A stretch of DNA of 37,479 nt from Elusimicrobiaceae bacterium (GTDB taxonomy: Bacteria; Elusimicrobiota; Elusimicrobia; Elusimicrobiales; Elusimicrobiaceae). The stretch spans positions 1 through 37,479 of the forward strand of contig JAFVWP010000135.1 in the NCBI GenBank assembly GCA_017501565.1, written 5' to 3'. Position 1 is the first letter of the stretch, and every line of letters starts with the position of its first letter. The notes below the pieces were generated by a model. It saw only the letters and a list, made by a program, of their open reading frames with translations. It was not told the DNA's origin and searched no databases. The position numbers and the translations under genes were made by a program. This document shows, in pieces, positions 2,686-37,479 of the stretch.

Positions 2686-2715
2686 TATTTTTGTGTTGGA
2701 TAAAGAGGGATATTT

Positions 2716-4062: not shown

Positions 4063-4064
4063 GT

Positions 4065-5087: not shown

Positions 5088-5091
5088 TTAA

Positions 5092-12916: not shown

Positions 12917-13885
12917 ATGAACATCAAATATAGAGTTTTAATAGCTTGTTTAGCCTTGGCTTTGGCGGCTCCTGCCGCCATGGCCTCCACCAATGCCGAT
13001 GCCGGTACCAGCGCCAGCGCATTCTTGAAAATTGACGCCGGTTCCCCGCGTGCCCAAGCATTGGGTAATGCCTACGTATCCGTAGCTGACGGCCCGGAAG
13101 CCTTGTTCTGGAACCCTGCCGGTGCCGCTTCTGCCACCACGCGTGAGATTGAATTTTCCTACTTGGACTATTTGCAAGGTTACAAAGCCCGCACATTGGC
13201 CTACTTGCAACCGATGGGAAAAACCATTATCGGGGTGACGTTCAATTATATGGATATGGACGGCTTTGATTATCGTGACTCTTATGGTCATCAACAACCG
13301 GTAGTAGATAAGCCGGTGCAGAACTTTGTGGGCAGTTTGTCTTTGGCCCGCGGGTTCTTCAACCAAGGTTTACAAATCGGTGCTACGGCTAAATATATCA
13401 ATGAAAAATTGGACACCTATCGCTATACCAACGTAGGTTTTGACGTAGGTGCCAAAGCGCGCCCTTGGCAATGGTTGGGTTTGGGCGGTGCTATTGTAAA
13501 CATCGGTGATAAAGAAGAAATGCCGCGCGGTTGGCGCGTCGGCGGTGATATTAACACCAAATATTGGACCTTGTCCACCGAATATATGAAATATGTAGAT
13601 GACGACGGACGTTTTGGCGTCGGTTTGGAAGTCCATATTCCGGAAGACATCTTGCAAGTGGCCCAATTTGATTTACGTGTGGGTTGGTATGACCGCGAAA
13701 GCACCGGTTACAGCGAGAGCGAAAACTTGAAGAGCTTAGGCTTAGATGCCACTTCCAAAGTATCCTTCGGTTTTGGTATTTACAGCTCTGAATTGTTCGG
13801 TTATGGTGCCAGCATTGACTATGCTGTTACGCCGTTTGGGGCGTTGGGTACTTCCCAACAGATTGCCGTATCGGTACAATTTTAG
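12917..13885 (+). CDS. PorV/PorQ-family outer-membrane beta-barrel protein
   Basis: The 322-residue product has a signal peptide at about 1-23 (ends AAMAS). It then shows the PorV/UPF0164 signature: Gly-Ser-Pro-Arg-Ala-x-Ala-Leu-Gly-Asn-Ala-Tyr, followed by DGPEALFWNPAG. The rest alternates short amphipathic strands and turns as in FadL-like barrels and ends in an aromatic residue (AVSVQF), the typical outer-membrane barrel terminus. In Bacteroidota, PorV is the outer-membrane shuttle of the type IX system and binds C-terminal signals of cargo. Here the gene lies 11 nt after a gene whose product ends in a type IX-like domain, so a cargo-carrier relationship is a reasonable inference. No other type IX component is in the window. 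A Tad pilin gene follows 31 nt later. Confidence 0.85.
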   Translation: MNIKYRVLIACLALALAAPAAMASTNADAGTSASAFLKIDAGSPRAQALGNAYVSVADGPEALFWNPAGAASATTREIEFSYLDYLQGYKARTLAYLQPMGKTIIGVTFNYMDMDGFDYRDSYGHQQPVVDKPVQNFVGSLSLARGFFNQGLQIGATAKYINEKLDTYRYTNVGFDVGAKARPWQWLGLGGAIVNIGDKEEMPRGWRVGGDINTKYWTLSTEYMKYVDDDGRFGVGLEVHIPEDILQVAQFDLRVGWYDRESTGYSESENLKSLGLDATSKVSFGFGIYSSELFGYGASIDYAVTPFGALGTSQQIAVSVQF

Positions 13886-15693: not shown

Positions 15694-16428
15694 ATGAAAT
15701 CTACTGCAAAAATAACTTTATTCGTTTTATTGCTGGCTTTGGCGTGCCCTGCCGCCTTTGCCAAAAAGACGCGCCTGGTGGCCGTCAGTGCCGATGTGGT
15801 GGAAATCGGCGGTACTTTGACCTCTGCCAAGGGGTTTGAGTGGAACCAGATTTTTGACTTTGAAGAAGCCAATATCCCCGGTATTTTATCCTTGGGTGAG
15901 TTTGAACGTAAAACCGCCGTGGTAACCCGCTTGCGCTTGTCTGAAACGGAAGGCCGCGCACAGGTGCTTTCCAACCCGAAGATTGTTACCAGCTCCGGTA
16001 ATGCGGCTAAAATTACGGTAGGCGGTAAAGTACCTATACCGGTGGTGAATAACCAAGGCGTCGGCTCTCAATTGGAAGAATATGGTATTTTGCTTAACGT
16101 TTTGCCTACGATTATTCCGGAAAGAGGCAATATTATTGACTTGCAAGTACAGCTTTCCGTTTCTACGGTGGACTATTCCCGCACGGTATCCGTGGGTACG
16201 GCGACGGCTCCGTCTTTTACCAACCGCGATGTGGAAACCCACGTAGAATTAAACAGCGGTGAAACGTTGGTAATCGGCGGTTTAAAAAGCAGCTATCGCA
16301 ACGTCAGCGAAAACCGCGTTCCTTTCTTGGGCAAATTGCCTTTGATCGGTCTGTTGTTTAAATATAAAGATATTACGGAAGAACAACGCTCTCTCTTCTT
16401 ATTTATTACGGTTGAAGTGGTGGAATAA
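15694..16428 (+). CDS. cpaC: Short CpaC/RcpA-like secretin
   Basis: The 244-residue product has a signal peptide at about 1-22 (ACPAAFA) and the secretin core: VLSNPKIVTSSGNAAKITVGGKVPIPV, GILLNVLPTI, an internal V-E-T-H-V-E-L-N-S-G-E-T strand, VIGGLKS and VPFLGKLPLIGLLF near the end. Secretins form the outer-membrane channel for the pilus. Typical CpaC/RcpA proteins are 400 residues or more, with N-terminal BON or N0/N1 domains; here only about 60 residues precede the secretin core. No frameshift or upstream remnant is visible, so the gene appears naturally short. It sits between cpaB and the ATPase gene. Confidence 0.88.
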   Translation: MKSTAKITLFVLLLALACPAAFAKKTRLVAVSADVVEIGGTLTSAKGFEWNQIFDFEEANIPGILSLGEFERKTAVVTRLRLSETEGRAQVLSNPKIVTSSGNAAKITVGGKVPIPVVNNQGVGSQLEEYGILLNVLPTIIPERGNIIDLQVQLSVSTVDYSRTVSVGTATAPSFTNRDVETHVELNSGETLVIGGLKSSYRNVSENRVPFLGKLPLIGLLFKYKDITEEQRSLFLFITVEVVE

Positions 16429-24104: not shown

Positions 24105-25052
24105 ATGAAAAAATTATTAGCTGTTGCTATGGCCTTTGTATTGGCCTATCCGGCTTTTGCCGCCAATAAGGCGAAAACTGCCGCTAAAACCCCCGCCAGA
24201 CCCAGCGTAGAATTTATTGTCATTGAGTCTGACGACTATGCCGCCGGTAAAGTGGATATGCCGATGGCCAATGCGGTAGCCAACTTTTTGGGTGGTGATG
24301 CCAACGTAACCCCGGTTTCTTACCAACAAGCCAAACAGAACCCGGCGTATGCAAATATGGATATGAGCTATTTGCCTTTGTATCTTTTGAAATCTACCCC
24401 GCAATACCGCGAAAAATTGACCCAACATATTTCTGTCGGTCAAGTTTTGGAAAGAGGGGAATATTTGGTTTTCCCGCATTTGTCTAATACCGGTGTTTAC
24501 CAAGATAAAGTAGCCAATCCGGGCGTATTGGAAATTTTTGTTATGTCCCAATGTCCGTTTGGCGCGATGGCCGAAAACTTGGTAATTGATGCGATGAAAG
24601 CGGGCAAATTGCCGGCTGACAAAGTTATCAAATTGCGCTACATCGTAAGCTACAACGAACAAAATGGTTTCCAAAGCTTGCATGGTTCCGGCGAATGGGA
24701 AGAAAACGTACGCCAACTTTTGATTGCCAAATACTATCCCGCCAAATTGTGGAAATATTTGGAAATCCGCAACAAAGATTACCGCTCCAGCCGCTGGGAT
24801 AAAGCGATGGAAGAAGCCGGTATCAACGTCAAAAAAATCACGAAAAAATTTGATACCGAAGGTATTGAACTCTTGAAAAAAGAAGCCGCTTACAGCGATG
24901 AATACGGCATTAATGCTTCTCCTTCTTTCTTGTATGAAGGAAAAGAAAAATTGGATTTCGGTTCTGTATCCCAAAAACCGGGATTTGAATTTATGAATCC
25001 TTCCAATGCCAACCGCGGCGGCGGCCAAGCGGCCCCTGTCGGTAGCTGCTAA
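24105..25052 (+). CDS. Exported thioredoxin-fold (DsbA-like) protein with a single active-site Cys
   Basis: The 315-residue product has a signal peptide at about 1-19 (AYPAFA) and a thioredoxin-fold domain from about 140. The strand-helix VLEIFVMSQCPFG-AMAENL resembles SQCP-x-C motifs of DsbA-like proteins, but the second Cys is Gly (CPFG). The cis-Pro loop is visible as ASPSFL near residue 275. The whole protein has only two Cys: this one and the very last residue (PVGSC), which might act as the missing resolving partner. A plausible role is thiol exchange or chaperoning for Cys-rich surface proteins such as the giant protein at 8031 (inference). It is the last gene before the intrinsic terminator at 25078, preceded by AAGGAG. 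Confidence 0.8.
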   Translation: MKKLLAVAMAFVLAYPAFAANKAKTAAKTPARPSVEFIVIESDDYAAGKVDMPMANAVANFLGGDANVTPVSYQQAKQNPAYANMDMSYLPLYLLKSTPQYREKLTQHISVGQVLERGEYLVFPHLSNTGVYQDKVANPGVLEIFVMSQCPFGAMAENLVIDAMKAGKLPADKVIKLRYIVSYNEQNGFQSLHGSGEWEENVRQLLIAKYYPAKLWKYLEIRNKDYRSSRWDKAMEEAGINVKKITKKFDTEGIELLKKEAAYSDEYGINASPSFLYEGKEKLDFGSVSQKPGFEFMNPSNANRGGGQAAPVGSC

Positions 25053-25077
25053 CACCAAAATTTCTACTCAAAACAGG

Positions 25078-25112
25078 GCGGGGGCTAAGAGCAAATCTGG
25101 GCCCCCGCTTTT
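25078..25112 (+). terminator. Rho-independent terminator at the end of the Tad operon
   Basis: GCGGGGGC (25078-25085) pairs perfectly with GCCCCCGC (25101-25108) around a 15-nt loop, followed by TTTT (25109-25112). It lies 25 nt after the stop of the thioredoxin-fold gene and ends 13 nt before the next start codon. The stem is very GC-rich compared with the surroundings; the T-run is short. Confidence 0.85.
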
Positions 25113-25125
25113 AAGAAAAAAATTT

Positions 25126-27009
25126 ATGAAATTAAGAAAGAACGGATTATTCACCCAAGCCTTGCTTGCTTTGACCTTTGTATCACTTGTGCCGGTGCTT
25201 TTAATTGTGTGGCACGTGATGCGGGCGGATAGCCGTGTCTTGCAAAGTGAAATCTTAGACCGCCAGCGCATCATGGCAGACCAAATAGGCAGTATTGTGG
25301 CTGATGTGGTGGAGCGGGAAGTACAATTTTTTTCGGTATTTACGGATTTGCATAACGATTTTACGGACCATCACTATATCAACCAACAGGATATTGAATA
25401 TTTACGTCTTAAAAACCCTTCCATTACCCATATTTCCGTTTTAAATAATAAAGGCCGTCAGCTTTTTCATTCCAGCGATCAAAACAGCCGTTTTACATAC
25501 GCGCCGGAGTTGGCCAATATCTTGAAAACTTGCGTCGGACAAGGCAAAGAATATGTAGGCTCTGTCAGCCGCAACAGAGGCCGCTTATTGGCTTTAATGG
25601 CCTTTCCTATCCGTGAGGCAACAGATCCCCAAAAAGTAAGCGGTGTTTTATTGGCGGAAATGGATTTGGCCCAACTCGGTAAAGATTTAAGCAAAGTTTA
25701 TAATGAAGATTTTTCAGTAGCTATTTTATCCGGCGATAACGGATTGATTTCTTATTCCGGCGTGCCGGGCGGTTTGGCTTTGCAAGATAACAATTTATTA
25801 AAGGCAAAAATAGACGAAATAGAAAAACTTTTAGCGGGTAAAGATAGCGCGATTATTTCTTTGCCCGATCAAGACGAGCTGTTGGTCAGCCGCGTGAAGG
25901 TGCCCTCTTTGGGGTGGTTTGTTTATGTTTATCAGCAAGCCAACACCGGTCATAAGCTGTTTATGGAAAGTACCTTTCATTCCCGTTGGGATATGTTGTG
26001 GATTATGTCAGCGCTGGCGGGGTTTGTTGTTTTGGTGGCCTATTTGGTTATTCGCCCCATCGTGCGTCCGGTACAGCGTTTAACGGAAGTAGCCGTAAAA
26101 TTTGAGCGGGAAAAGGGATATTTGCCTACTGAGTCTGAATTGATTATTCCCAATAATGAAATCGGCGAATTGCAACGGGTGTTTTTGCACATGGCGCGTT
26201 CTTTGGTGGAGCAAAAAAATGAGATTTTAGCCGCACAGAAAGAATTGGGTCTGATGAATAAAGATTTGGAATTGCGCGTGCAAGAACGTACGGCCGAATT
26301 AAAAGCGGCTACGGACGAGTTGGTAAAGTCCGAGCAATTGGCCGCTATCGGTCAAATGGCCTCTATCATCAGCCACGAAATCCGTAATCCGCTTGCGGTT
26401 ATCAGCAATGCCACGCGCCTGATTAAGACCATTACCCCGCCGACCGACCCGAAATTAATCAAGCAATTTTCCATCATTGAAGCGGAAATCAAACAGGCCA
26501 ACAGCATCATCAGTGAAGTGTTGGGCTTTGCCCGTAGCCGCGAACTGATGCTGAGTATGATTGATTTAAACAGCTATGTGCATGACATTGTGGCTTCTTA
26601 TCCTGCCGGCCCCGAAGTGCGCCTGGTGGAAGAATTGGACCAAGAAAGTGTGCGCTTAAAAATTGATGCCGAAGAAATCAAACAAGCCTTGCGCAACTTG
26701 CTGTCCAACGCTTGCGAAGCCACCCCCAGCCACGGCAGTGTGCGGGTGGGAACGTTGGTGGGCAAAAAAGCGGTATGTATTTATATAGAAGACGAAGGCC
26801 CCGGCATTAGCCCTGAAATGAAAGAAAAAATATTCTCTCCATTTTTTACTACCAAAGCCCGCGGTACGGGGCTTGGGTTGGCCGTTGTGCATAAGGCGGT
26901 CAAAAGACATAAAGGCAAAATTTTTATTCATAGCGAAGAAGGCAAAGGCACTTGCTTTGCTATTTATTTAAGAGTTTACAAGAAAACCGGAGATACAAAG
27001 TATGACTGA
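25126..27009 (+). CDS. Membrane sensor histidine kinase (Cache-like sensor, HAMP)
   Basis: The product of about 627 residues has TM1 at about 10-30, an extracytoplasmic Cache-like sensor at about 35-290, TM2 at about 290-315 and a HAMP domain (RPIVRPVQRLTEVAVKF to NEIGELQRVF). A coiled coil precedes the HisKA domain with the phospho-accepting His417 in SHEIRNPLAV. The ATPase domain has the N box NLLSNACEATP, G1 DEGPGISP, F box FSPFFTT and G2 GTGLGLAVV. I chose ATG 25126; the upstream frame from 25006 lies inside the terminator and the previous gene. The ribosome-binding site is weak. It probably phosphorylates the REC domains encoded next. It shares its genomic position with the Tad genes, suggesting control of piliation. 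Confidence 0.92.
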   Translation: MKLRKNGLFTQALLALTFVSLVPVLLIVWHVMRADSRVLQSEILDRQRIMADQIGSIVADVVEREVQFFSVFTDLHNDFTDHHYINQQDIEYLRLKNPSITHISVLNNKGRQLFHSSDQNSRFTYAPELANILKTCVGQGKEYVGSVSRNRGRLLALMAFPIREATDPQKVSGVLLAEMDLAQLGKDLSKVYNEDFSVAILSGDNGLISYSGVPGGLALQDNNLLKAKIDEIEKLLAGKDSAIISLPDQDELLVSRVKVPSLGWFVYVYQQANTGHKLFMESTFHSRWDMLWIMSALAGFVVLVAYLVIRPIVRPVQRLTEVAVKFEREKGYLPTESELIIPNNEIGELQRVFLHMARSLVEQKNEILAAQKELGLMNKDLELRVQERTAELKAATDELVKSEQLAAIGQMASIISHEIRNPLAVISNATRLIKTITPPTDPKLIKQFSIIEAEIKQANSIISEVLGFARSRELMLSMIDLNSYVHDIVASYPAGPEVRLVEELDQESVRLKIDAEEIKQALRNLLSNACEATPSHGSVRVGTLVGKKAVCIYIEDEGPGISPEMKEKIFSPFFTTKARGTGLGLAVVHKAVKRHKGKIFIHSEEGKGTCFAIYLRVYKKTGDTKYD

Positions 27010-27013
27010 GTAA

Positions 27014-28123
27014 GTGAAAATTTTGGTAGTAGATGACGATAATAACCTGCGTGAAACGATGGCGGATTTGTTGGAAATTGAAGGGTACCGCGTTTACCAA
27101 GCCGGCAACGGACAGGAATGTCTGGATTTGGTTTCTACGGAGTTTTTTAATGTTATTTTGATGGATTATAATTTGCCCGATGAAACAGGCTTGGATTTGA
27201 TTCGCAAAATCCGCGGTTTTAACCAAGATTCGCAAATTTTAATGATCACCGCCTACGCTTCTTTAAACTCTATTATGGAAGCGATGAAAGAGTCTGTGTA
27301 TGACTTTTTAATTAAGCCGGTGGATTTTGATTATTTAAAACGCACCATTAACCGCGCTTTGGATAAATATTTCTTGGAACAAAGCAACAAAGCTTTGCTG
27401 GCCCAATTAAAACAAAGAAACGAAGATTTAGACAGACTCAATAATATGAAATCTAAATTTTTCTCCATTGTGTCGCATGACTTGTCTAATTCTTTAATGA
27501 CGCTGAAGATGAGCTTTGATATGTTGAAAAAACGCCTGACCCCGGACGAAGACCAAGCCAAAAAAATGTCTTACATGGACGAAAGTATCGGTCAAATTGA
27601 ACATTTGATTAAAGATTTGGTGGATTGGGCGGCTATTGAAAAAGGAAAATTACGCATTGAAAAGGCGCCGTTTGAATTGACGGCAAGCATGAAGAAAACC
27701 GCCGAAATTTTCAAGGATAAAGCCGGCAAAAGAAATATTGCCGTAACGTTTGAAAGTGTGGGGGAAATCCCTGTATTTGCCGACGAAAAACGTATCCGTC
27801 AGGTTATTTCCAATATTTTAGAAAATGCGGTACGTCATACGCCGGACTACGGAAAAATAGACGTAATCGTGAGCAAACTAGATGAAAAAAATGCTAAAGT
27901 GTCCGTAAAGGACTCTGGAGACGGCATAGATCCCCAGCAGGCCCCTTCTTTGTTCTCCAGCTTTACGCAAGTAGGCGAAAAAGGACGCGTAGGGCGCTTG
28001 GGGTTGGGGTTGTCTATCGCCAAAGATATTGTGACCAATCATGGGGGCCGTATTTGGGCCGAAAGCAAAGGCTTAGGCCAAGGGGCAGCGTTTAATTTTA
28101 CTTTGCCCATCGGCAAAAATTAA
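27014..28123 (+). CDS. REC-histidine kinase hybrid
   Basis: The 369-residue product begins with a receiver domain (KILVVDDDNN, phospho-acceptor Asp51 in LMDYNLP, Thr and Ala of MITAYAS, Lys of LIKPVD), then a coiled linker, a HisKA domain with His155 in VSHDLSNSL, and an ATPase domain (NILENAVRHTP, DSGDGIDP, GRLGLGLSI). It has no membrane segment. REC-first hybrids can relay phosphate from an upstream kinase, here probably the product of 25126. The GTG at 27014 has a poor ribosome-binding site. An in-frame ATG at 27002 with GGAG upstream is cut off by TAA at its fourth codon, so the true start is uncertain. Confidence 0.9.
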   Translation: MKILVVDDDNNLRETMADLLEIEGYRVYQAGNGQECLDLVSTEFFNVILMDYNLPDETGLDLIRKIRGFNQDSQILMITAYASLNSIMEAMKESVYDFLIKPVDFDYLKRTINRALDKYFLEQSNKALLAQLKQRNEDLDRLNNMKSKFFSIVSHDLSNSLMTLKMSFDMLKKRLTPDEDQAKKMSYMDESIGQIEHLIKDLVDWAAIEKGKLRIEKAPFELTASMKKTAEIFKDKAGKRNIAVTFESVGEIPVFADEKRIRQVISNILENAVRHTPDYGKIDVIVSKLDEKNAKVSVKDSGDGIDPQQAPSLFSSFTQVGEKGRVGRLGLGLSIAKDIVTNHGGRIWAESKGLGQGAAFNFTLPIGKN

Positions 28124-28149
28124 TTTGAAATTCTACGGGAGCGAACTAC

Positions 28150-28833
28150 ATGAATAAAAAGAAAAAAGTGAAAGTGCTCATTGCAGATGACCAAACCCTT
28201 TTCCGCGAAGGTATCAAAGACGTATTGACCGGGGAAAAATGGATTGAGGTCGTAGGCGAAGCGGCCGACGGCATGGAAGCGGTGGCTTTGGCTAAAAAAC
28301 TTAAACCGGATGTGGTGCTGATGGATATTAAATTGCCGAAATTGGACGGCATTTCCGCCACGCGCCAAATTCGCCAATTAGCACCGGAAGTAAATGTACT
28401 GATGCTTTCTTCTTTTGAAGACGAAGCACACGTGTTAGATGCTATTCAAGCCGGAGCTAACGGATATTTATCTAAAATGTTACCGGCGGCGGAATTGGTC
28501 AATTCTATTAAAACTTTTACAACGGAAGGGCTGATGATTCCGCAACAGCTGATGGGCAAACTCTTGCACGGGTTGCGCCGTATGGGCGAAGGCGGTATGC
28601 CTACGCAAGCTACCTTAACCAAGACCGAAATTAAGGTCATGGACTTGTTGGGCAAAGGTATGAGCAATAAAGAGTTGGCCAAAGAATTGGGCTGTAGTGT
28701 AAAAACCATTAAAAATCACTTAAACAGCGCCTTTCATAAATTAGGGGTCAGCAGCCGTACCGAAGCGGTAGTAAAAGCTATTGAAAAAGGGCTTATTTCT
28801 TCCGAAGGGACCAAATTTAGCGACGACGAATAA
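28150..28833 (+). CDS. NarL/FixJ-family response regulator (REC-LuxR HTH)
   Basis: The 227-residue product has a receiver domain at about 7-125 (VLIADDQ, phospho-acceptor Asp59 in VVLMDIKLP, Ser and Ser of MLSSFED, Lys of YLSKML) and a LuxR-type DNA-binding domain at about 155-220 (LTKTEIKVMDLLGKGMSNKELAKELGCSVKTIKNHLNSAFHKLGV). It is the only DNA-binding protein recognised in the window, so it is the likely transcriptional output of the two kinases upstream. Candidate targets are the pilus promoters, for example the one at 30696 (inference). It has a GGGAG ribosome-binding site and is followed 7 nt later by a pilin gene. Confidence 0.94.
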   Translation: MNKKKKVKVLIADDQTLFREGIKDVLTGEKWIEVVGEAADGMEAVALAKKLKPDVVLMDIKLPKLDGISATRQIRQLAPEVNVLMLSSFEDEAHVLDAIQAGANGYLSKMLPAAELVNSIKTFTTEGLMIPQQLMGKLLHGLRRMGEGGMPTQATLTKTEIKVMDLLGKGMSNKELAKELGCSVKTIKNHLNSAFHKLGVSSRTEAVVKAIEKGLISSEGTKFSDDE

Positions 28834-29021: not shown

Positions 29022-30140
29022 ATGCGTCAGACACTTACTTTGATAAAGAAGAGCTTGCATAATAACCGGGCACAAATTTTGCTCCCGGCGGTAATGCTTG
29101 CGCCTATTTTTATCTTGGTGGTGTATTTGTTGTTTGAAACGGCTAAACTTTCCATGGTAAAAGTGGAAAACCAATTCGCCCTGGACAATGGGGCTTATAC
29201 TCAAATGTCTGCTACCAGCGGTTATTTAAATGGTATGGCTCAGGTCAATGCCGTGCTCCCGTACCGCGTAATGAAGACGATGAGTACGGAATTGGTGGCC
29301 AAATCTTCTTATGCCAATAAAGGGGAAAAGGTGACCGTTTTTGACGTGTTTTATACGGCCGGTGCTTTTCCGGCGATGGGCCCTAACCATGAAATGGGGC
29401 CTAACGGCGCCGTGGCCAACCCGCCGCCGGCGGCTGAGTCTACGGATTGGAACTTTCAATATTACAAAGGAATGCGCGCCGATTGGAATAAAGAAGACCC
29501 CAAATTAACCGCCGATAAAGACGGAAAAGTAATTATCACCAGCGAACATATTGCGGATAATTATTTCTTTGGGTTTAATGCTATTGGGCAGGCGGCTTTG
29601 AGAGAATGGGCGACCATTTATATCCGTACGCAATCCATTTATCTGTCTCAAGATTATGTGTATAAAGATATGATAGAAAAGTCCAAAGTATTCCGCGAAA
29701 GTTATTATTTAAACACCAAAGGTTCATGCAAAAAACGTGAATGCGGCCGTCAGGCAGCGGAAACATTGGAGCGTTTTGAATTGGAAACAGAGCCTTTTGA
29801 AATTGATGATATTATTATGAATATTACCAACGATTTCGGTTCTTCCAATAGTCACGCCGGTTATTATGAGTTGCCTATTAAATTGTCCGAAGTTATCAAA
29901 ACCAAATTGTTTCAATTTGCGTATTTAACTCCGCAAAGCCGCACCCGCTTGCGTCGTTTGCAACGCGGCGTATCGTTGAAACAAAAATTTCAAGTGCCGT
30001 CCAACCGCTTTAATATTAATATTACCCAACGCTATAAACCTTATGTTACTAACAGCGTAACTATTTCTTGTCCGCGCAGCAGCAACAACTGCGTATGGCC
30101 CAATCCATTGCCCAAATATAGCGTAAAGGTGGGTTTATGA
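29022..30140 (+). CDS. TadG-like pilus assembly protein
   Basis: The 372-residue product has an N-terminal hydrophobic anchor at about 20-42 (ILLPAVMLAPIFILVVYLLFETA) followed by a helix with KVENQFALDNGAYTQ, similar to the TadE/G-like pattern in which an anchor leads into a helix near 'Q-x-A-x-D'. There is no Glu at position +5 of a Gly-type processing site (NNRAQILLPA), so it is not a cleaved pilin. The long extracytoplasmic part has four Cys (GSC, REC, ISC, NNC), suggesting disulfides. It overlaps the next TadE-like gene by 4 nt (ATGA), indicating tight coupling. TadG-type assignment is by pattern and context. Confidence 0.7.
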   Translation: MRQTLTLIKKSLHNNRAQILLPAVMLAPIFILVVYLLFETAKLSMVKVENQFALDNGAYTQMSATSGYLNGMAQVNAVLPYRVMKTMSTELVAKSSYANKGEKVTVFDVFYTAGAFPAMGPNHEMGPNGAVANPPPAAESTDWNFQYYKGMRADWNKEDPKLTADKDGKVIITSEHIADNYFFGFNAIGQAALREWATIYIRTQSIYLSQDYVYKDMIEKSKVFRESYYLNTKGSCKKRECGRQAAETLERFELETEPFEIDDIIMNITNDFGSSNSHAGYYELPIKLSEVIKTKLFQFAYLTPQSRTRLRRLQRGVSLKQKFQVPSNRFNINITQRYKPYVTNSVTISCPRSSNNCVWPNPLPKYSVKVGL

Positions 30141-30676
30141 GAAATATTTTCTTTTCCCGAAAAGGCCAGGCTACTACGGAAACGGTGTTGCTGTTTCCGA
30201 TTATGGTTATTTTTATTGTTTTTATCATCAAAATTTTCGGGGTCATGGTTTTGGCCCAAAAAATGGAAATTGCCGCTTTTTATGCCGCGCGCCGCTACCA
30301 ATTGCAATCCCACACAACGGCTTATTTGCAACGTTGGGACCGCCGCTATTTGCAGAAAGATATTAAGAAAAAAGTAGAAGATTATGTAGGGTTTAACAAC
30401 CCCGCCATGGTGCGCTTTTTAAGTTTGCGCTCTTTGGATTTAAAAATTTCCCAGCCCGACGATGAAATATGGACGCACGTTACATTGACGGCCAAAACTG
30501 CTCCTCCGCGCATCAATTTTTTATGCAGATACGATAAGATGAAAGTGTGTGAAGATAATGCTGACTGCTTAACAGGGTATAATTTTTTGTGTGAAACCGG
30601 CGGAGAAATTCAAGTCATCAAATATATAGGCCCCAACGAACGTGTGTTGCCCTATATCCGCCCCGAAGGAAAATAA
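30137..30676 (+). CDS. TadE-family pseudopilin, second copy
   Basis: The 179-residue product has a short basic leader, a prepilin-type site (RKG then QATTETVLLFP) with Glu at mature position 5, and a hydrophobic helix VLLFPIMVIFIVFIIKIFGVMVLA, followed by an AAFYAARRYQLQ helix and a polar domain. The C-terminal part has four Cys (FLCRYD, VCEDN, DCLTG, FLCETG). It differs in length and C-terminal domain from the TadE at 14377, so both may be used as different minor subunits. It is the last gene before the strong promoter at 30696. Confidence 0.85.
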   Translation: MRNIFFSRKGQATTETVLLFPIMVIFIVFIIKIFGVMVLAQKMEIAAFYAARRYQLQSHTTAYLQRWDRRYLQKDIKKKVEDYVGFNNPAMVRFLSLRSLDLKISQPDDEIWTHVTLTAKTAPPRINFLCRYDKMKVCEDNADCLTGYNFLCETGGEIQVIKYIGPNERVLPYIRPEGK

Positions 30677-30695: not shown

Positions 30696-30724
30696 TTGAC
30701 AACACCGCCAAAACCATTTATACT
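30696..30724 (+). promoter_or_regulatory. Near-consensus sigma-70 promoter for the accessory membrane-protein operon
   Basis: TTGACA at 30696-30701 and TATACT at 30719-30724 are separated by exactly 17 nt; together they differ from the consensus at one base. Transcription should start near 30731, giving a leader of about 108 nt before the start codon at 30839. This is the strongest promoter seen in the window. Confidence 0.85.
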
Positions 30725-30731: not shown

Positions 30732-30792
30732 GCGCAAGGTATTGCGCACCATTTTAAACTCTGTGTTTGAGCATAAAAGCCTTGTCTTTTAT
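30732..30792 (+). other. Two hairpins in the 5' leader of the accessory operon
   Basis: Hairpin 1: GCGCAA (30732-30737) with TTGCGC (30742-30747), loop GGTA, located at the predicted transcript 5' end. Hairpin 2: ATAAAAG (30773-30779) with CTTTTAT (30786-30792), loop of 6 nt. Neither is followed by a T-run. Hairpin 1 could protect the RNA 5' end, or its DNA palindrome could be an operator. Confidence 0.5.
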
Positions 30793-30838
30793 GGGTCAGC
30801 AAGAGTGAATTTTTATATATGTATACAGGGAGCGTCTT

Positions 30839-32422
30839 ATGTTAAAAATGTTTAATAAAGGCCCGAAGGTAATTAAGGGCAAAGAGACAAAAGACAACGC
30901 TAAAAAGCCTTTTGCTCTTTTTGGTAAAAATAAATCTGCTTCTGCCGCCAAAAAACAGGCTACGCCGCTGGCGAACATTTTTGATAAGTTTAACAAAATG
31001 GACCGCAAGCAAGCCTATACTTTTGGGGCAATCGGCTTGGCGGTATTTGTGGCTCTTCTTACATTAGGCGGTGCGTTGGCTAGTGCCCCGGAAGAAGACT
31101 TTTCCGATTTTGAAACCCGCGGGTACGATTTGGCCAATATGCCCTTTTCTACCGATGAAGCCGAAAAATATTTGCTGGCTTCCCGCTACCAAGACGTAAA
31201 AGGGAAAGACCAAATCGGTCTTTATTCGCCTGAAGAAAAGGCTGAACGCCAAGCAGAAGATTTAGCCGCGGCCGAAGAAGCCGCCGCCAATACGGATTTT
31301 GGCGGAGCTACTTCCGGCGGTTCTGCCTATGTGCCGGGCCGTTATTATGGCGGTGGCGGGGCAGGCGCCAAAGGAACACCTACGCAAGTAGGCAAATTAA
31401 ACAGCGCCGGTTTGAAAAGTGCCGGCGGCTCCGGTATCAAAAGTACCTTCGGCCCTACGGGAGATTTTTCTCCTTTTAAAGGCCAAGCGAAAGGAAAAGC
31501 GTTACCGCAAACTGCCGGAAAAGGCGACGCCCGCACCGCCTTGCGTCAGACCGCTCAAGGCAGCCGTGCCGCCGCGGGGCTTAAAAATGCCAAGTTGCTC
31601 AATGCCAAAAAAGCCATGATGGGCGGCGATATTAAAGGAAGCGGCGCTTTTATGGACGATAGCGGCGCGGTTAACTTAGACGCGGCCAAAGGTTTGGCAT
31701 TAGATACCAATGCTCCCGTCAGCAGTGCTGATATGAGCGGCTTTAACGATGCCGTCAAAGAGGCCAACGAGGCCGCCAAACAAGAAGCGCAAGCGGAAGA
31801 AGAAGACCAATTTTGGAGAGAATGGTGGGGTAATGTTTTAGAAACAATAGCCAATGCCGCCATACAGATCGGTACTTCTTATGTGCAAAGCAGTATAGAT
31901 GATGCCATCGCCACCCGACAGGCCGAAAATACGCAGTATGCTATTGAGATGAACAATGCACAATCTCAATATAATTATGAGCCTATTACCGAAACACCCA
32001 CTGCCGATCAGGTAGCCGGTAATAAAGACTTGCAAGACGCCTTAGACCTTACCCCGGGGGACGCTAGCAAGGGGCAAAACCCCACATCTTTATACAATAA
32101 AAAAGGGACTGAAGTGGCTACTCAAGGAGCCGACGGAAAAACCAATTGGAGTAAAGGATATGAAGAAGAATATACTTTGGGTAAAAAAGAAGCGGCAGAA
32201 TTAAACAGAAAAAACTTTGATACATGGGCTAAAACGCAAGGCGAAGAAGGGGCAGCGATGCTCAATAATATTGAACGTGCCAAAGCCGAAGGACGGGCCA
32301 ATAATTCTTATGATTCTAGCTCGGGTCGTTTGCCGCCGGCTTCTTCTTTCCAGGATGGGCACCGCCAGTATTATCAAGGGCGCTATTGGGTAGTACAAAA
32401 CGGAAAATGGGTACAAGAATAA
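30839..32422 (+). CDS. Unrecognised membrane-anchored protein, Gly/Ala-rich (accessory protein 1)
   Basis: I do not recognise this 527-residue product. It has a Lys-rich N-terminus (about 1-58), one TM segment at about 59-82 (FGAIGLAVFVALLTLGGALA), a Gly/Ala/Ser-rich low-complexity region at about 140-270 with YYGGGGAG, an acidic helical region (EANEAAKQEAQAEEED) followed by WREWW, and a polar C-terminus ending with aromatic, Gly-rich YYQGRYWVV-x-NGKW. The orientation is most likely cytoplasmic N-terminus with the bulk outside. It is the first gene after the strong promoter, with a GGGAG ribosome-binding site. It shares overall layout with the products of 32447 and 34010. Reading frame and codon use are typical for the window. 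Confidence 0.85.
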   Translation: MLKMFNKGPKVIKGKETKDNAKKPFALFGKNKSASAAKKQATPLANIFDKFNKMDRKQAYTFGAIGLAVFVALLTLGGALASAPEEDFSDFETRGYDLANMPFSTDEAEKYLLASRYQDVKGKDQIGLYSPEEKAERQAEDLAAAEEAAANTDFGGATSGGSAYVPGRYYGGGGAGAKGTPTQVGKLNSAGLKSAGGSGIKSTFGPTGDFSPFKGQAKGKALPQTAGKGDARTALRQTAQGSRAAAGLKNAKLLNAKKAMMGGDIKGSGAFMDDSGAVNLDAAKGLALDTNAPVSSADMSGFNDAVKEANEAAKQEAQAEEEDQFWREWWGNVLETIANAAIQIGTSYVQSSIDDAIATRQAENTQYAIEMNNAQSQYNYEPITETPTADQVAGNKDLQDALDLTPGDASKGQNPTSLYNKKGTEVATQGADGKTNWSKGYEEEYTLGKKEAAELNRKNFDTWAKTQGEEGAAMLNNIERAKAEGRANNSYDSSSGRLPPASSFQDGHRQYYQGRYWVVQNGKWVQE

Positions 32423-32446
32423 TTTTAGTTTTAAAAGGAGAGTTTT

Positions 32447-33931
32447 ATGAAAATGCTTAGAACTATTTTAAACAGCCGGTGGGGCAAGACGTCCGTTTCC
32501 ACCTTGCGCGTAGTAGGCGCCGCCGCTGCCTTGGGTGTGGCGGGCATTGCGGCCTGGCAAATAACGGGCTCTCCCGAAGAAATCAGCCCGGAAATGGCCT
32601 TTTCTTCTTCTGATGCCGATGTGGTCTATGTGGCGGGGAATGCCGGCCGCGGTGCATACAGCGGTGTCAGTTATGGCGAAGGGGGAGAGGTGCAATCTAC
32701 CATTCGTGCCAGACTTTCCCATAGCCAACGCATGATGAATGCCGAATTTGAAAAGAGCCAACTTGCCCAAAGCGAATTAGATGCCGCCGAAGGTAAGATA
32801 CAAGCCTATAAAATGGACGGCGCTTCCGGCGGGTTAGGCGTACAAGGTGCGTCTGCTACTTCCATGGGGGATTTTGGCAATACGGGCTCTTCCGCTGAAA
32901 TACAAGCACAGATGGCCGGATTTCAAGCTAAATTAGCCGAAGCCCAACAAACGGCCCAAGCCGCCGCGGCGGCCGGAGCAAGAGCAGGGGCCGAAGGCGC
33001 TAATGGCGATGCTACTTCCGCGGCCGTAGCCGCTATGCAAAAAGCCCAAGGCGGCAAATGGGCTATGAATGAGGGCATTGTCCGCAGTGGCGGTACGAAC
33101 TTGAATACGCTTGAGTTTGGCGGCACCAATATTAATACCAAAGAAGGTCATTCTGTTTCTCACGCCGAAAAAATGCGCGTGGGCGGTGTTTCTCAGATAG
33201 ATGAAAGAAATCCGCTGTATGCCGGGGGGCGCGATGGGGTATTCGGAAACGGAAAAATGAAAGTGGACACCTTGCAAGCGTATGCTAAAATGTCTGCTGA
33301 TACCACCAGAATGGGGGATAAGGCCACGGACGTATTTATGGCCGGAACAATCCAAAAGAAAGCGGCTTCTATCAATGGCACAAGAGCTACTACGGGTGGT
33401 AATTCCAGCTCTATGGACTTTGGGGAAAACAATTCTATTCCCGCAGATGCTTTTGATGCGGCCATTGACAAAACGGAAGAATTTGAAGCCGATCAACAAG
33501 CCTTGCGCGATGCTTTGAAAACTTTTGTCAATAAATGCGGCTGGTCTTCTTTGATTCCGGGATTAAACTATGTCGGTTATCTTACGATGCTTAAACAAAG
33601 AAATGATTTGTATAAACAGGTAGAACAATTCCAGGAAAAATGGGGTTATAATACTCCGAAAGAAAAAGCGTATTATGCCCAGTATGTAGGTCAAACGATG
33701 AACGTACAAGAAGATCATAACTTTGGTACAGACATTAGAGATATGGCTTATAATGCTTACCGCGCTATTGGTGGTAGCGGTCAACCATGGTATGTGTATA
33801 AACGTATGAAAAAACAGCTGTGGCAAGAAAATGAAGAAGAAGAAAAGAAAAATCAAGGTGGATCTTCTTCCAACAGAGAACCGCAAAATATTCACGGCGG
33901 TAGCAGACACAAAGGTGATTTGAATGTGTAA
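32447..33931 (+). CDS. Unrecognised membrane-anchored protein, Ala/Gly-rich (accessory protein 2)
   Basis: I do not recognise this 494-residue product. A basic N-terminus leads to a TM segment at about 20-40 (VVGAAAALGVAGIAAWQ), then coiled coil (SQRMMNAEFEKSQLAQSELDAAEGKIQ), an Ala-rich helix near 160-190 (AQQTAQAAAAAGARAG), GGTN motifs (SGGTNLNTLEFGGTNINT), an acidic helix (DKTEEFEADQQALRDALK), a moderately hydrophobic segment around GWSSLIPGLNYVGYLTML, and a charged C-terminus. It has an AAAAGGAGAG ribosome-binding site 24 nt after the first accessory gene. The third accessory protein repeats several of these elements, including GGTN. A helical rod or ring-forming structural role is possible but unproven. 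Confidence 0.85.
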   Translation: MKMLRTILNSRWGKTSVSTLRVVGAAAALGVAGIAAWQITGSPEEISPEMAFSSSDADVVYVAGNAGRGAYSGVSYGEGGEVQSTIRARLSHSQRMMNAEFEKSQLAQSELDAAEGKIQAYKMDGASGGLGVQGASATSMGDFGNTGSSAEIQAQMAGFQAKLAEAQQTAQAAAAAGARAGAEGANGDATSAAVAAMQKAQGGKWAMNEGIVRSGGTNLNTLEFGGTNINTKEGHSVSHAEKMRVGGVSQIDERNPLYAGGRDGVFGNGKMKVDTLQAYAKMSADTTRMGDKATDVFMAGTIQKKAASINGTRATTGGNSSSMDFGENNSIPADAFDAAIDKTEEFEADQQALRDALKTFVNKCGWSSLIPGLNYVGYLTMLKQRNDLYKQVEQFQEKWGYNTPKEKAYYAQYVGQTMNVQEDHNFGTDIRDMAYNAYRAIGGSGQPWYVYKRMKKQLWQENEEEEKKNQGGSSSNREPQNIHGGSRHKGDLNV

Positions 33932-33936
33932 TCGTT

Positions 33937-33960
33937 CTTGCGCGGGGACACCCGCGCAAG
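33937..33960 (+). other. Perfect 10-bp stem-loop without a T-run
   Basis: CTTGCGCGGG (33937-33946) pairs perfectly with CCCGCGCAAG (33951-33960) around the tetraloop GACA, 6 nt after the stop codon at 33931. No T-run follows on either strand, so it is not a standard intrinsic terminator. It lies 50 nt before the start of the next gene, whose ribosome-binding site GGAGGG is strong. A role in mRNA stability, processing or differential expression within the operon is possible. Confidence 0.7.
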
Positions 33961-34009
33961 GGCAGAAGAAGGAAAAAGTCGTTTTATTTTACTAAGGTCG
34001 GAGGGACTT

Positions 34010-35608
34010 ATGAAAGTCTGGAACTATTTGAAAAGTTGCACAGGAGCCATCAGCAAAGCCGGCGCGTTGGGTTTAACCGCCACTTTGGGTTTGGTGGGCT
34101 TGAATGTATATAACTTTGTCATGGACAGACCCGCTGTGGAAGAAAAAGCGGTCCGTTCATTAAGCCAAATTATGGCTTCGGGCGGGGATATCCCGGCGGA
34201 ATACACAGGCATTAACATTTCTGCCGACGGCGTGGAATTTGCCACCGCGGAAGAAATTGCCAAACGCGAAGGCACTTTTTTAGACGGCGGCAATGCCGCA
34301 GTAGATGCTATTAATGCCTTTGGCGGCCCCGGTGTGAAGGGGCAGGTGTTTACCGAAGGCGGCGAAGGCTTGGGCCTGGGAGCCAATAAAGCCTTGCGTG
34401 TCAATGCAGACGGCACCCCTGTTGATGGGGGAGCCAATGCAGACCCGGCCGCTGTGGCCGCAGCCGCCAGAGCGGGAGCCGCCGCTACCAAAGCCGGAGC
34501 TGAAAACGGCGCCGAAGGCGGAACCGCGGGAAATGCCGCGAATGGGCCGACTTTGAGCAGAGCCACCATTGCACGCGCCAGCGGTAGCAATTTGGGTAGC
34601 GGTACGATGTTTGGCGGTACGAATACTTCTTCCAACGGCGGTGCGGGTAATAAAGCCAATACCAATGTGGGAGCCAAATCTATCAGCGGTGCAATGCGCG
34701 AAGGAAGCACCTTCTTGCAAGTATCTGATTCTTTAAAGGGTACGACCGCCGCTTCTTATAAGCCGTCTAAATCCGTTCAAAAACCGAAACCGCAAAAAGG
34801 CCGCTTGGTAGATGTGGGGCTCAGCAATGACTTAAGAGGCATTGCCAAAGATATGGGTACGATTAAATTAGCCGCCATGCAAGGACGTACTACCTTGGGT
34901 GGTCCGCAAAAGGTCTATATGAACTCAAAAAATCTTACTTTTGCCGAAGACGGCTTTGCCGATGGGTCTATTGTGCCTACCAAGTCGTCTGGCGAGGGCA
35001 CCCCGGACCCGAGCACCCCGGACGGATTGGACGAAATGGAAGAAGATTTAATGGAAGGAACGGAAGATTTGGGCTTGCAAGAAGCAGAACGTAAAAAAGA
35101 AAGGAACGGGCTGAGAACGGCATTGTTAAGCTTATTAGGTGCTACCTTGGTCTCGATGGTTGCTATTTCCGCTTGTATGCAAAGCCCAGAACCTTGGGGC
35201 AAGGCGGTCGGTTGGGCTTTGGCCGGTGTTATGTATGCGTGCATCGCGGCACTTTTGGTTAGCTCTATTTTGTATGCCGTCAAATGGAAAGCTGCCAATG
35301 ATGGCTGGGTCATCGGCTCTTGGGTCGGTGTAGCGGCTATGATAGCTGGTATTACCTTGGCGGCCGTGGGTCAAGGATTCCAAAAGAAAGTTAATAAAGC
35401 TATTGAAAGCGTTATGGAATGGCTGGAAGGCGGTATTGGCGAAAAAGGAGCCAAAGCGGTTTCTGGCGCAGCCTTGGGGGTAGGCGGTAATCAACTCTTG
35501 AAAGGTGGCAAAGCCGGGGTTAACCAATTTATGGACGTGGTAAACACCACCAGCGACGGCTCTTTAACCAATACCGGCGCCGAAAATGCCGAAAATGCTG
35601 GGAAATAA
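34010..35608 (+). CDS. Unrecognised multi-TM protein, Gly/Ala-rich (accessory protein 3)
   Basis: I do not recognise this 532-residue product. It has an N-terminal TM at about 14-38 (AGALGLTATLGLVGLNVYNFV), a long Gly/Ala/Asn-rich region to about 250 with FGGTNTSSNGG, a basic linker (KPSKSVQKPKPQKG), an acidic helix (EMEEDLMEGTEDLG), then three closely spaced TM segments at about 370-390, 400-425 and 432-457, and a Gly-rich C-terminus. The C-terminal TM group, with a conserved-looking Gly pattern and repeated Trp residues, faintly recalls VirB2-like pilins, but no processing site supports this. I chose ATG 34010 because of the strong GGAGGG upstream; the longer frame from 33938 runs through the stem-loop. 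Confidence 0.85.
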   Translation: MKVWNYLKSCTGAISKAGALGLTATLGLVGLNVYNFVMDRPAVEEKAVRSLSQIMASGGDIPAEYTGINISADGVEFATAEEIAKREGTFLDGGNAAVDAINAFGGPGVKGQVFTEGGEGLGLGANKALRVNADGTPVDGGANADPAAVAAAARAGAAATKAGAENGAEGGTAGNAANGPTLSRATIARASGSNLGSGTMFGGTNTSSNGGAGNKANTNVGAKSISGAMREGSTFLQVSDSLKGTTAASYKPSKSVQKPKPQKGRLVDVGLSNDLRGIAKDMGTIKLAAMQGRTTLGGPQKVYMNSKNLTFAEDGFADGSIVPTKSSGEGTPDPSTPDGLDEMEEDLMEGTEDLGLQEAERKKERNGLRTALLSLLGATLVSMVAISACMQSPEPWGKAVGWALAGVMYACIAALLVSSILYAVKWKAANDGWVIGSWVGVAAMIAGITLAAVGQGFQKKVNKAIESVMEWLEGGIGEKGAKAVSGAALGVGGNQLLKGGKAGVNQFMDVVNTTSDGSLTNTGAENAENAGK

Positions 35609-35620
35609 TGGGACTGACTT

Positions 35621-35881
35621 ATGGCTAAAATAGACAGAACTTTAAGAAAGGTGTTTGCTTGGGCGGTGCTGGTGAGTATAGTGGCGGTGTTCATTGTAGT
35701 AATTGCACATTTTCAAAGTCAGCACCGCCAAGCCCAGCGGGAAGTGATTTACCGCAAGGCTCTAATGCAAGTAAAAAAGGACCGCGAAGCCCGCAAAAAT
35801 GAATACTTGCGCCGTTTAGAGCGCGAACGCGCCGAAAAGGCTTTTCAGGATAGTGCGCTTTTGGTGAAGCAAGAGCCTTAA
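35621..35881 (+). CDS. Small membrane-anchored coiled-coil protein (accessory protein 4)
   Basis: I do not recognise this 86-residue product. It has a short basic N-terminus, one TM segment at about 11-31 (VFAWAVLVSIVAVFIVVIA) and a strongly charged helix at about 33-77 rich in Arg, Lys, Glu and Gln, with heptad-like spacing. This suggests a coiled coil next to the membrane, as in FtsL/DivIC-like or other small adaptor proteins, but no family motif is visible. It lies 12 nt after accessory gene 3 and 20 nt before accessory gene 5, so it is part of the operon. Confidence 0.75.
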   Translation: MAKIDRTLRKVFAWAVLVSIVAVFIVVIAHFQSQHRQAQREVIYRKALMQVKKDREARKNEYLRRLERERAEKAFQDSALLVKQEP

Positions 35882-35901
35882 TCGGACGTAGGGAGTTTGT
35901 G

Positions 35902-37401
35902 ATGAAACAGGAAAAAACAAGTGTCCGGCAAGAGCCACAAGTGCAAGAAGTGAACTTGCGCCACGGCGAAAACCCGGTCCATCAAGAAAAGTCTTTGCAG
36001 AAACGCTTAAAGCAAAAACGCTTTTGGGTAGGATTAACACTTGTTTTTTTCCTGTTTTGCTTTATATTTATAATACCGGTAGGTCGTGTGCCGGGGTTGC
36101 GAAACCTGGCGTGGAAGATAGGCGTTTCGCAAACAGATGCCCAACAGATAAGCACCGGTAGAGTTTTGTGGAGTTGGGTGCGTAGCGGATTTAAACATTT
36201 CGGCTCTGCCGAAGATGAAATTTTGCTCTTTGATAAAATAGACCCGTATGCTGCCCCCCATGCAAAAGGGGAATCTGCCTTGTTTGATTTAAAAGCGCTC
36301 AATGCTTCCCGCCGCAAACGTGGCTTAAAGGCAGAAAATATTGACGGCATTTATAACGGGCCCGAAACGGAAAAGCCTTTGCCGGCATTAAATCATGCGG
36401 TGAAAGGGTGGAGTAAAGAAGCGCTTTCTTTTGCTACCCAGGCACAGAAACAACAGGAAGTGTACTTTTTACAAGATGCTTCTTCTTTAGATGTGGCTGA
36501 ACCTAATCAAGGCTCTTCCGATACGATTGCCCTGTTGCCCAAAGCGGCAATTGTGGGCGTCGTCGGGCCGCAAGATTGGGTGGCGGATTTGGCCTATAAA
36601 GCTGATGAAGCCCAAGGGGTAGAATTGCCGAAAACCGGGAAACAGGCAAGCAAAACGCAAGCCGTCCAACAGATGCTTGCCTACGCGCAAGCTAAAGAAG
36701 ATTTGGCTGAAGCATATTTATTAAGCCGCTCTGCCGAAAAAGCCTTGCACCCGATGCGCAAGCAACAGCTTGCCACTGCGGCTTATTTGGCGGGCAGTAC
36801 TGCACCGAGTGATTATGAAGTAGGGGGCGTTGTAAGCGGGGTTATATTAAGCGGAAAGGAAAAAGTAACTTATCAAGATCCGCAAGCTAAAAAAGATTTA
36901 TCCGATAAGCAGTGTGAAGCATTAAGCAAAAAAGTAAATGCAGAAGTGGCGCATAAGTTGGAGCAATCGCGCTTGATTGTGCAAACCATTTACCAAAGCG
37001 TGCCGAAAAGCTGTAATGACCGATGGGACCTTTGGAAAGGATATTTAGGCAAAGTTACTGCCTATTGCCAAGATATTCAAAAGATCGTACAGCCTATTTC
37101 GGGCCAATGCGGTATGCAGATTTATCGCCCCGGCACTTGTGAGGCGTACCGCTTAAACAGCTACGTTGAGCAATTGGGGCAAGTGTGTGAAAGCCTGGCC
37201 GCGGCGCAAGCAGTACAACCGGCCAAAAAAGAAAAAGTACAGCAGTTGCTTGCAGAGCAAAAAGAAATTGTAGAGCAGTTGACAGAAGGCGAAGTATTTA
37301 ATACCTTTAATTTAGGGGCAGAAGGAGATACTTCTGTCGGCAGTGAGGAGTTCTTCCCGGTTACTGAAGAAAACAAGAGTTGGCTTTTGGATATACGCTG
37401 A
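35902..37401 (+). CDS. Unrecognised membrane-anchored protein with a Cys-rich C-terminal domain (accessory protein 5)
   Basis: I do not recognise this 499-residue product. A polar, charged N-terminus (about 1-38) leads to one TM at about 40-62 (GLTLVFFLFCFIFIIPVG). The rest is predicted outside: helical segments rich in Ala, Gln and Lys, and a C-terminal domain at about 330-440 with six Cys (KQCEAL, KSCND, AYCQD, GQCGM, GTCEA, QVCES) that may form disulfides. Tandem GTG and ATG starts occur at 35899 and 35902; GGGAG at 35891 is better spaced for ATG 35902. It is the last complete gene in the window. No enzyme signature is visible. Confidence 0.8.
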   Translation: MKQEKTSVRQEPQVQEVNLRHGENPVHQEKSLQKRLKQKRFWVGLTLVFFLFCFIFIIPVGRVPGLRNLAWKIGVSQTDAQQISTGRVLWSWVRSGFKHFGSAEDEILLFDKIDPYAAPHAKGESALFDLKALNASRRKRGLKAENIDGIYNGPETEKPLPALNHAVKGWSKEALSFATQAQKQQEVYFLQDASSLDVAEPNQGSSDTIALLPKAAIVGVVGPQDWVADLAYKADEAQGVELPKTGKQASKTQAVQQMLAYAQAKEDLAEAYLLSRSAEKALHPMRKQQLATAAYLAGSTAPSDYEVGGVVSGVILSGKEKVTYQDPQAKKDLSDKQCEALSKKVNAEVAHKLEQSRLIVQTIYQSVPKSCNDRWDLWKGYLGKVTAYCQDIQKIVQPISGQCGMQIYRPGTCEAYRLNSYVEQLGQVCESLAAAQAVQPAKKEKVQQLLAEQKEIVEQLTEGEVFNTFNLGAEGDTSVGSEEFFPVTEENKSWLLDIR

Positions 37402-37479
37402 TAGATTTGTAATGTAGTTAGATGTATCCGGTCTTAATGCGCCCAGGCGGCCGTTAAGGCCTGCAGTACCCGAATTTAT
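37402..37479 (+). other. Tail of window without a recognised gene
   Basis: The 78 nt after the last stop codon hold no ORF of note. A weak self-complementary element (GGCC, 5-nt loop, GGCC, flanked by CAG and CTG) lies near 37446-37466. There is no T-run after it within the window, so termination cannot be claimed. Confidence 0.4.

What the first reader, a model, noticed from the sequence alone, without database searches (positions are those of the whole stretch)
30839..37401. Candidate undescribed envelope system: five linked membrane-anchored proteins, three with the same layout
None of the five products matches a family I know. Proteins 1-3 (30839, 32447, 34010) share an order of elements: short basic N-terminus, TM, Gly/Ala-rich region with GGxx/GGTN motifs, an acidic helix (for example DKTEEFEADQQALRDAL and EMEEDLMEGTEDL) and then an aromatic or hydrophobic segment. 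This suggests diverged paralogues. Protein 4 is a small coiled-coil anchor and protein 5 has a six-Cys exported domain. A strong promoter drives them right after a Tad locus. They may form an inner-membrane-anchored scaffold for the pilus or another surface machine.
Basis: partly seen in the sequence, partly recalled or inferred. Interest (0 to 1): 0.78.

Follow-up and report, generated by a model that had tools for sequence, protein, structure and literature searches.

The report
Pilus-linked envelope genes with RNA leader
Gut bacteria of the Elusimicrobiota carry, usually right beside their Tad pilus genes, a fast-changing set of unknown membrane-anchored proteins that is headed by a constant promoter and a previously unlisted folded RNA, which suggests an undescribed surface machine with its own dedicated RNA control.

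Summary
The five genes are real, match no known family, and are a conserved set. In the genus (Candidatus Avelusimicrobium) the order tadG-tadE-P1-P2-P3-P4-P5 is kept and continues past the window's end with P6 (~1200 aa, one TM, a predicted Ig-like domain) and P7 (TPR). P2 and P3 are full-length paralogues (hhalign E 2.6e-47). P1 shares only a short motif with them, so 'three paralogues' is half right. P1, P4, P5 and P6 have one predicted TM each.

The main new result is upstream of P1. An invariant promoter (TTGACA-N17-TATACT) is followed by a hairpin RNA that is not in Rfam. Eleven of its 16 pairs show compensatory changes. Among 341 Elusimicrobiota genomes it occurs only in genera that carry this set. 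In the Elusimicrobium-like genus, where the set is split and lies away from tad, it still precedes both P1 and P6; in another genus it precedes each of two P1 copies. So it marks one regulon.

Best reading: a Tad-associated inner-membrane/surface accessory module under leader-RNA control. The Tad link holds in most genera but is broken in one; mechanism and function are inferred. Partly supported, with a substantial unlooked-for find.

The parts
30696..30724 (+). sigma-70-type promoter TTGACA-N17-TATACT of the P1 operon
   Evidence: best of 15 sites in 8.7 kb, 11 of 12 matches; invariant in 36 of 37 genus leaders while the proteins are 30-45% identical
30758..30806 (+). structured leader RNA (model R1): stem ACUCU/AGAGU, inner UGA/UCA stem with a 1x2 internal loop, variable apical stem
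   Evidence: 11 of 16 pairs with compensatory changes, 93.8% of cells paired, covariation score 0.495 against at most 0.147 when slid; found only with this gene set in 341 genomes; no Rfam match
30807..30824 (+). conserved U-rich tract after the hairpin
   Evidence: present in the aligned leaders of genera g1, g12, g15, g16 and also in g13
30839..32422 (+). P1: basic cytosolic tail, one TM, conserved RGYDLANMPFxxDEAExYLL segment, Gly-rich linker, helix motif
   Evidence: relatives in four genera
32447..33931 (+). P2: paralogue of P3; one N-terminal TM; C-terminal TMs lost in this clade
34010..35608 (+). P3: paralogue of P2; weak N-terminal TM, Gly/Ala-rich linker, acidic helix, three C-terminal TMs
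35621..35881 (+). P4: 86-aa single-TM protein with a charged helix
   Evidence: its position moves between P2 and P3 in the other clade
35899..37401 (+). P5: single TM, exported six-Cys helical bundle
   Evidence: 39 of 41 genus genomes; also found in g12, g15, g16
29022..30140 (+). TadG-like gene (context)
   Evidence: no Pfam match of its own
30137..30676 (+). TadE-like pseudopilin (context)
   Evidence: PF07811 E 1.7e-4, just below the cut-off
37402..37479 (+). start of the P5-P6 gap; P6 and P7 continue on contig C129 of the same genome (locus L134, reverse strand, 187-3798 and 3913-5595)

Best explanation
P1-P6 form one co-regulated envelope module of host-associated Elusimicrobiaceae, most likely an accessory assembly of the Tad pilus. 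P1-P5 are inner-membrane-anchored proteins with exported low-complexity linkers and small folded domains. P6 is a single-TM protein with a large, variable exported part that includes an Ig-like domain, and would be the part that reaches outward. The operon has its own strong promoter and a hairpin leader RNA. The RNA most likely works as a feedback switch on P1 and P6 synthesis, bound by a product of the module (the lysine-rich cytosolic tail of P1 or P6 is the candidate) or by a ligand, through the hairpin, the U-tract and access to the ribosome-binding site. Shown: gene set, synteny, paralogy of P2/P3, promoter, RNA structure, regulon membership. Inferred: link to pilus function, outward exposure of P6, the RNA's ligand and its direction of control.
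For: Synteny tadG-tadE-P1-P2-P3-P4-P5 in the genus, with P6 and P7 after it where contigs reach that far; the same order with a duplicated P1 in genus g15; P1 next to tadE in g16; leader RNA 77 bp after tadE in g13; a P5 relative (E 1.3e-6) and several look-alike genes after tadE in g14. tadA is present in all 16 family genomes tested. RNA covariation and exclusive association with this set: in g12 two copies, before P1 and before the unlinked P6; in g15 a copy before each of two P1 genes. The promoter is invariant. The hairpin is in the minimum-energy fold of 37 of 44 leaders. Single-TM topology. Ig-like domain in P6. The sister family has a Gly-rich one-TM gene with its own conserved promoter and another covarying leader hairpin, next to tadE in some genomes.
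Against: In g12 the set is split over three places away from tad. The g14 genome has tad without a recognisable leader RNA, P1 or P6. In the sister family most copies were not seen beside tadE. No protein matches a known Tad component. No expression, binding or localisation data. SD sequestration is only weakly favoured in silico.
Confidence: 0.45

Rival explanations
1. The module is an envelope or surface structure of its own that merely sits beside tad in most genera (shared chromosomal neighbourhood, not shared function).
For: In g12 P1-P2/3-P4, P6 and P5-P7 are all away from tad yet kept, with the leader RNA before P1 and P6. It has its own promoter, separate from tad. Tad occurs without recognisable P1 or P6 in g13/g14.
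Against: Linkage to tadE in g1, g15 and g16, with the RNA (g13) or look-alike genes (g14) after tadE in two more genera and a related gene next to tadE in part of the sister family. In g12 P5 sits directly before P7 and rsmA/ksgA, the downstream end of the linked form, so the split looks secondary.
Confidence: 0.3
2. P5/P6 (and perhaps P1-P3) are Tad cargo or tip proteins, adhesins displayed on the pilus, and the fast divergence reflects host or phage pressure.
For: P1-P5 are 31-45% identical where the histidine kinase and response regulator next door are 90-96%; the neighbours TadG (60%) and TadE (72%) also diverge (G016). P6 has an Ig-like domain and a Cys-rich variable exported part. A DsbA-like gene lies in the locus.
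Against: No prepilin-type N-terminus is seen in P1-P5; the strongly conserved cytosolic tails of P1 and P6 argue for a fixed inner-membrane role. P2/P3 relatives have multi-TM C-termini.
Confidence: 0.15
3. The conserved hairpin is a DNA operator (an inverted repeat bound by a regulator) or a plain transcription terminator rather than a regulatory RNA.
For: It lies 30-40 bp downstream of the promoter; a U-tract follows; a conserved kinase/response-regulator trio lies upstream in the tad locus.
Against: G-U pairs are common, the internal loops are conserved and asymmetric, and the apical stem keeps pairing with freely changing sequence. The U-tract starts about 3-5 nt after the stem, which is poor for a terminator. 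A terminator this close to a strong promoter would block the operon unless conditional.
Confidence: 0.1

Closest known systems
Tad/Flp (type IVc) pilus loci
   Same: Adjacent to flp-like, cpaB/cpaC-like, tadA, tadB, tadC, TPR, tadG-like and tadE-like genes; membrane-anchored exported proteins
   Different: None of P1-P6 matches a Tad family in Pfam or NCBIfam; own promoter and leader RNA; can sit away from tad (g12)
Riboswitches and autoregulatory (ribosomal-protein-type) mRNA leaders
   Same: Compact covarying hairpin with conserved internal loops in a 5' leader, before the first gene of an operon and duplicated with it
   Different: No Rfam family matches; tied to one orphan envelope gene set and never seen before metabolic or ribosomal genes here; ligand unknown
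OmpA/MotB C-terminal peptidoglycan-binding domain (PF00691)
   Same: Sub-threshold match in P6 of two other genera (g12, g15), including GHTD...LS..R letters in g12
   Different: Below the curated cut-off; not recognised in P6 of this genus

Membership tests
Tad/Flp pilus system | genes lie in a tad locus | tested here: met
   g1, g15, g16 linked; RNA only after tadE in g13; look-alike genes in g14; not linked in g12
Tad/Flp pilus system | proteins belong to Tad component families (TadE/F/G, RcpB/CpaD and the like) | tested here: not met
   no Pfam or NCBIfam match for P1-P5 nor Pfam match for P6 of this genus
Tad/Flp pilus system | needed for pilus assembly or function | not testable with these tools
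   needs mutants
P1-P2-P3 paralogue family | P2 and P3 homologous over their length | tested here: met
   hhalign prob 100, E 2.6e-47, score 373 against at most 70 in controls; iterated HMMs seeded from either protein give the same 51 sequences
P1-P2-P3 paralogue family | P1 homologous to P2/P3 | tested here: inconclusive
   P1-P3 prob 88, E 2.7e-6 over a short motif; P1-P2 at control level
cis-regulatory structured RNA | covariation-supported secondary structure in a 5' leader | tested here: met
   in the fold of 37 of 44 leaders
known Rfam riboswitch or leader families | match to a covariance model | tested here: not met
   no relevant hit at E up to 1 or 5 on the window and on leaders of three other genera
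riboswitch | binds a ligand and switches expression | not testable with these tools
   needs probing and reporters
OmpA-like peptidoglycan-binding protein (P6) | PF00691 match above cut-off | tested here: inconclusive
   18 bits against cut-off 27.2 in two other genera; P6 of this genus not matched
immunoglobulin-like fold (P6 exported part, model residues 440-547) | structural match to Ig domains | tested here: met
   Z about 9, rmsd 2.8-3.0 over 92-95 residues; fold only, no function implied

The most novel reading that the evidence does not exclude
A new class of regulatory RNA, shared in topology across two families of Elusimicrobiales, senses assembly state or a second messenger and controls a previously undescribed, rapidly evolving envelope machine that works with, or has split from, the Tad pilus.
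Probability: 0.3. Interest if true: 0.8.

Novelty: new variant of a known kind. Interest (0 to 1): 0.6.

Why it matters
It gives a concrete handle on the surface biology of a poorly cultivated gut phylum. An orphan gene set too divergent for ordinary annotation is delimited by a conserved RNA, so its members can be found even when they have moved apart. If the RNA proves to be a feedback or second-messenger switch, it would be a rare case of a leader RNA devoted to a surface machine, and it can be tested in vitro without genetics in the host.

Tried and rejected
P1-P3 as three paralogues: rejected for P1 beyond a short motif. P4 and P5 as relatives of P1-P3: at control level. A known RNA family: none (the weak microRNA hits in the sister-family loci are chance). 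Homology of the two leader RNAs (R1 and the sister-family R2): neither model finds the other (the one R2 hit at E 0.11, in L130, does not lie on its leader), so only a similar topology is noted. A PDB relative of the P5 bundle: none below E 0.5, which does not exclude one. A PDB sequence relative of P5 or P6: none significant. A fold for P6 outside 440-547 is hardly tested. The P6 C-terminus of this genus as the OmpA-like domain seen in g12/g15: no profile support. First genome-collection scan with P3: nothing, because the protein diverges too fast. Papers on Elusimicrobiota pili or riboswitches: no paper on this system found.

Full report
What was checked. The five ORFs exist at the stated coordinates, with P3 starting at 34010. 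None reaches the cut-off of a Pfam or NCBIfam model. Hydropathy gives one TM near the N-terminus of P1, P2, P4 and P5; P3 has a weak N-terminal hydrophobic stretch and three clear TMs near its C-terminus. The flanking charges of P1 and P2 favour a cytosolic N-terminus; for P3, P4 and P5 the charge evidence is weaker. P5 has six nearly invariant cysteines at 339-430; AlphaFold2 places them in a confident helical bundle (residues 319-470; pLDDT mostly above 85) with no clear PDB match.

Where it is from. The window is a whole contig (G000:C135) of a 1.47-Mb genome. Genus g12 includes a complete genome of 1,643,562 bases, which from memory is the size of Elusimicrobium minutum Pei191; this identity was not tested.

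The set is conserved and larger than five. In the genus the order tadG-tadE-P1-P2-P3-P4-P5 is kept; P4 sits between P2 and P3 in one clade, and P3 is duplicated in L035. Where contigs reach further it continues with P6 and P7, and in many genomes then with an rsmA/ksgA-like gene. P5 was found in 39 of 41 genomes of the genus. In the window's own genome P6 and P7 are on the next contig, C129. Identity of the window proteins to one relative (G016) runs from 90-96% for the neighbouring histidine kinase and response regulator and 93% for TadA, through 72% for TadE and 60% for TadG, down to 31-45% for P1-P5.

Paralogy. Profiles of P2 and P3 align over 434 columns (probability 100, E 2.6e-47, score 373; reversed and shuffled controls at most 70), and iterated searches seeded from either converge on the same 51 sequences. 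P1 against P3 gives E 2.7e-6, but the reliable part is a motif of about 27 columns after the Gly-rich linker; P1 against P2 is at control level; P1 against P6 is marginal.

Distribution and Tad linkage. Profile searches of 149 genomes of the order and 341 of the phylum find P1 only in four genera of the family: g1, g12, g15, g16. P6 is found in g1, g12 and g15. TadA is present in all 16 family genomes tested. In g15 the order is kinase-regulators-tadG-tadE-P1a-P1b-P3-P4-P5-P6-P7, and in g16 P1 is next to tadE. In g12 the set is split: P1-P2/3-P4 beside rpsB/tsf-like genes, P6 elsewhere, and P5-P7-rsmA at a third place, all away from tad. P5 next to P7-rsmA looks like a remnant of the linked form, so I read the split as secondary (inference). 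In g14 several genes of the same layout and a P5 relative (E 1.3e-6) follow tadE. The sister family f2 has a Gly-rich one-TM gene, sometimes right after tadE, whose profile weakly matches P1 of g12, g15 and g16 (E 2e-4, score 40 against at most 25 in controls).

The leader RNA. Upstream of P1 lies TTGACA-N17-TATACT (30696-30724), the best site in 8.7 kb and invariant in 36 of 37 leaders of the genus. About 30 bases on comes AACUCUGUGUUUGAG-(apical stem)-GGGUCAGCAAGAGU followed by a U-tract. On 38 sequences from four genera, 93.8% of cells pair, 11 of 16 pairs have changes on both sides, and the covariation score is 0.495 against 0.20 for shuffles and at most 0.147 for slid versions; an independent consensus fold agrees. 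The shuffles do not correct for relatedness, but compensations such as A-U to G-C in the outer stem separate genera, and the apical stem has up to six pair types per position. The hairpin is in the minimum-energy fold of 37 of 44 whole leaders. No relevant Rfam family matches.

The RNA defines a regulon. A covariance model searched through 341 genomes hits 62 of 66 genomes of the genus, 3 of 3 of g12, 15 of 18 of g15 and 1 of 1 of g16, and nothing else beyond two marginal matches (E 0.06-0.09). In g12 each genome has two copies, one before P1 and one before the unlinked P6; in g15 several genomes have one before each of two P1 genes. In g13 a degraded but recognisable copy, with its promoter, lies 77 bp after tadE. 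The RNA therefore ties P1 and P6 together where neither gene order nor tad does. This is the strongest evidence that the genes form one system.

Sister family. All 23 matches of a second promoter pattern lie upstream of the Gly-rich gene in f2. The leader there holds a different hairpin (97.9% of cells paired, 6 of 12 pairs with double changes). Its core has the same 1x2 internal loop above a GA/UC step, but neither model finds the other, so common descent is only a possibility.

How it may work. P1 and P6, the two proteins that keep the RNA in g12, also have strongly conserved lysine-rich cytosolic tails. I therefore favour feedback: a module protein, or a ligand reporting assembly, binds the hairpin. 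The 5' strand (CUCU/CUCC) resembles an anti-Shine-Dalgarno sequence and pairs better than shuffles with the downstream ribosome-binding site in 36 of 44 leaders, so a translational switch is plausible but weakly supported. A metabolite riboswitch is less likely because the element never precedes other genes here. P6's exported part models with an Ig-like domain (Z about 9), and P6 of g12 and g15 has sub-threshold OmpA-like matches, which would suit an envelope-anchored, outward-reaching protein.

Verdict. The gene set, promoter, RNA and regulon are well supported. A Tad accessory role is the best single reading (0.45) and an independent envelope structure the main rival (0.3).

Noticed in passing
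window 8031-12905 and 12917-13885: A 1624-aa secreted protein with FlgD-like repeats and an ending that resembles type IX sorting domains, followed by a PorV-like outer-membrane protein, directly upstream of the Tad locus.
   Followed up: no
window 15694-16428: The CpaC-like secretin of this Tad locus is only 244 aa, a bare secretin core.
   Followed up: no
window 24105-28833: A DsbA/thioredoxin-like gene and a kinase, kinase-receiver and NarL-type regulator trio are set inside the Tad locus and are also present in g12, g13 and g15.
   Followed up: partly
window 6301-7800: A GGDEF-type protein (RYGGDEM); cyclic dinucleotide signalling may exist in this genome, a possible ligand class for the leader RNA.
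   Followed up: no
window 37441-37458 and locus L134 (start of the reverse strand): The sequence GCCCAGGCGGCCGTTAAG lies at the window end and, nearly identical, upstream of P6 on the next contig, so a repeat probably caused the assembly break between P5 and P6.
   Followed up: partly
L141, L143, L145, L146, L149; L142, L144, L146, L147, L148: In the sister family the Gly-rich gene after tadE is often followed by an S41-type peptidase gene, and many loci carry an FtsH-like AAA protease gene after tadE.
   Followed up: no
L035 8177-11473 (reverse-strand coordinates): Tandem duplication of P3 in one genome, showing that the P2/P3 family is still expanding.
   Followed up: no
L039 1499-1699, L053 1707-1895: A small pilin-like ORF (ATIEYVLMLATVVV...) between the response regulator and tadG in some relatives, absent from the window.
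   Followed up: no
G002:C79:10253-11791: P6 of one genome contains an in-frame TGA, a broken gene or a sequencing error.
   Followed up: no
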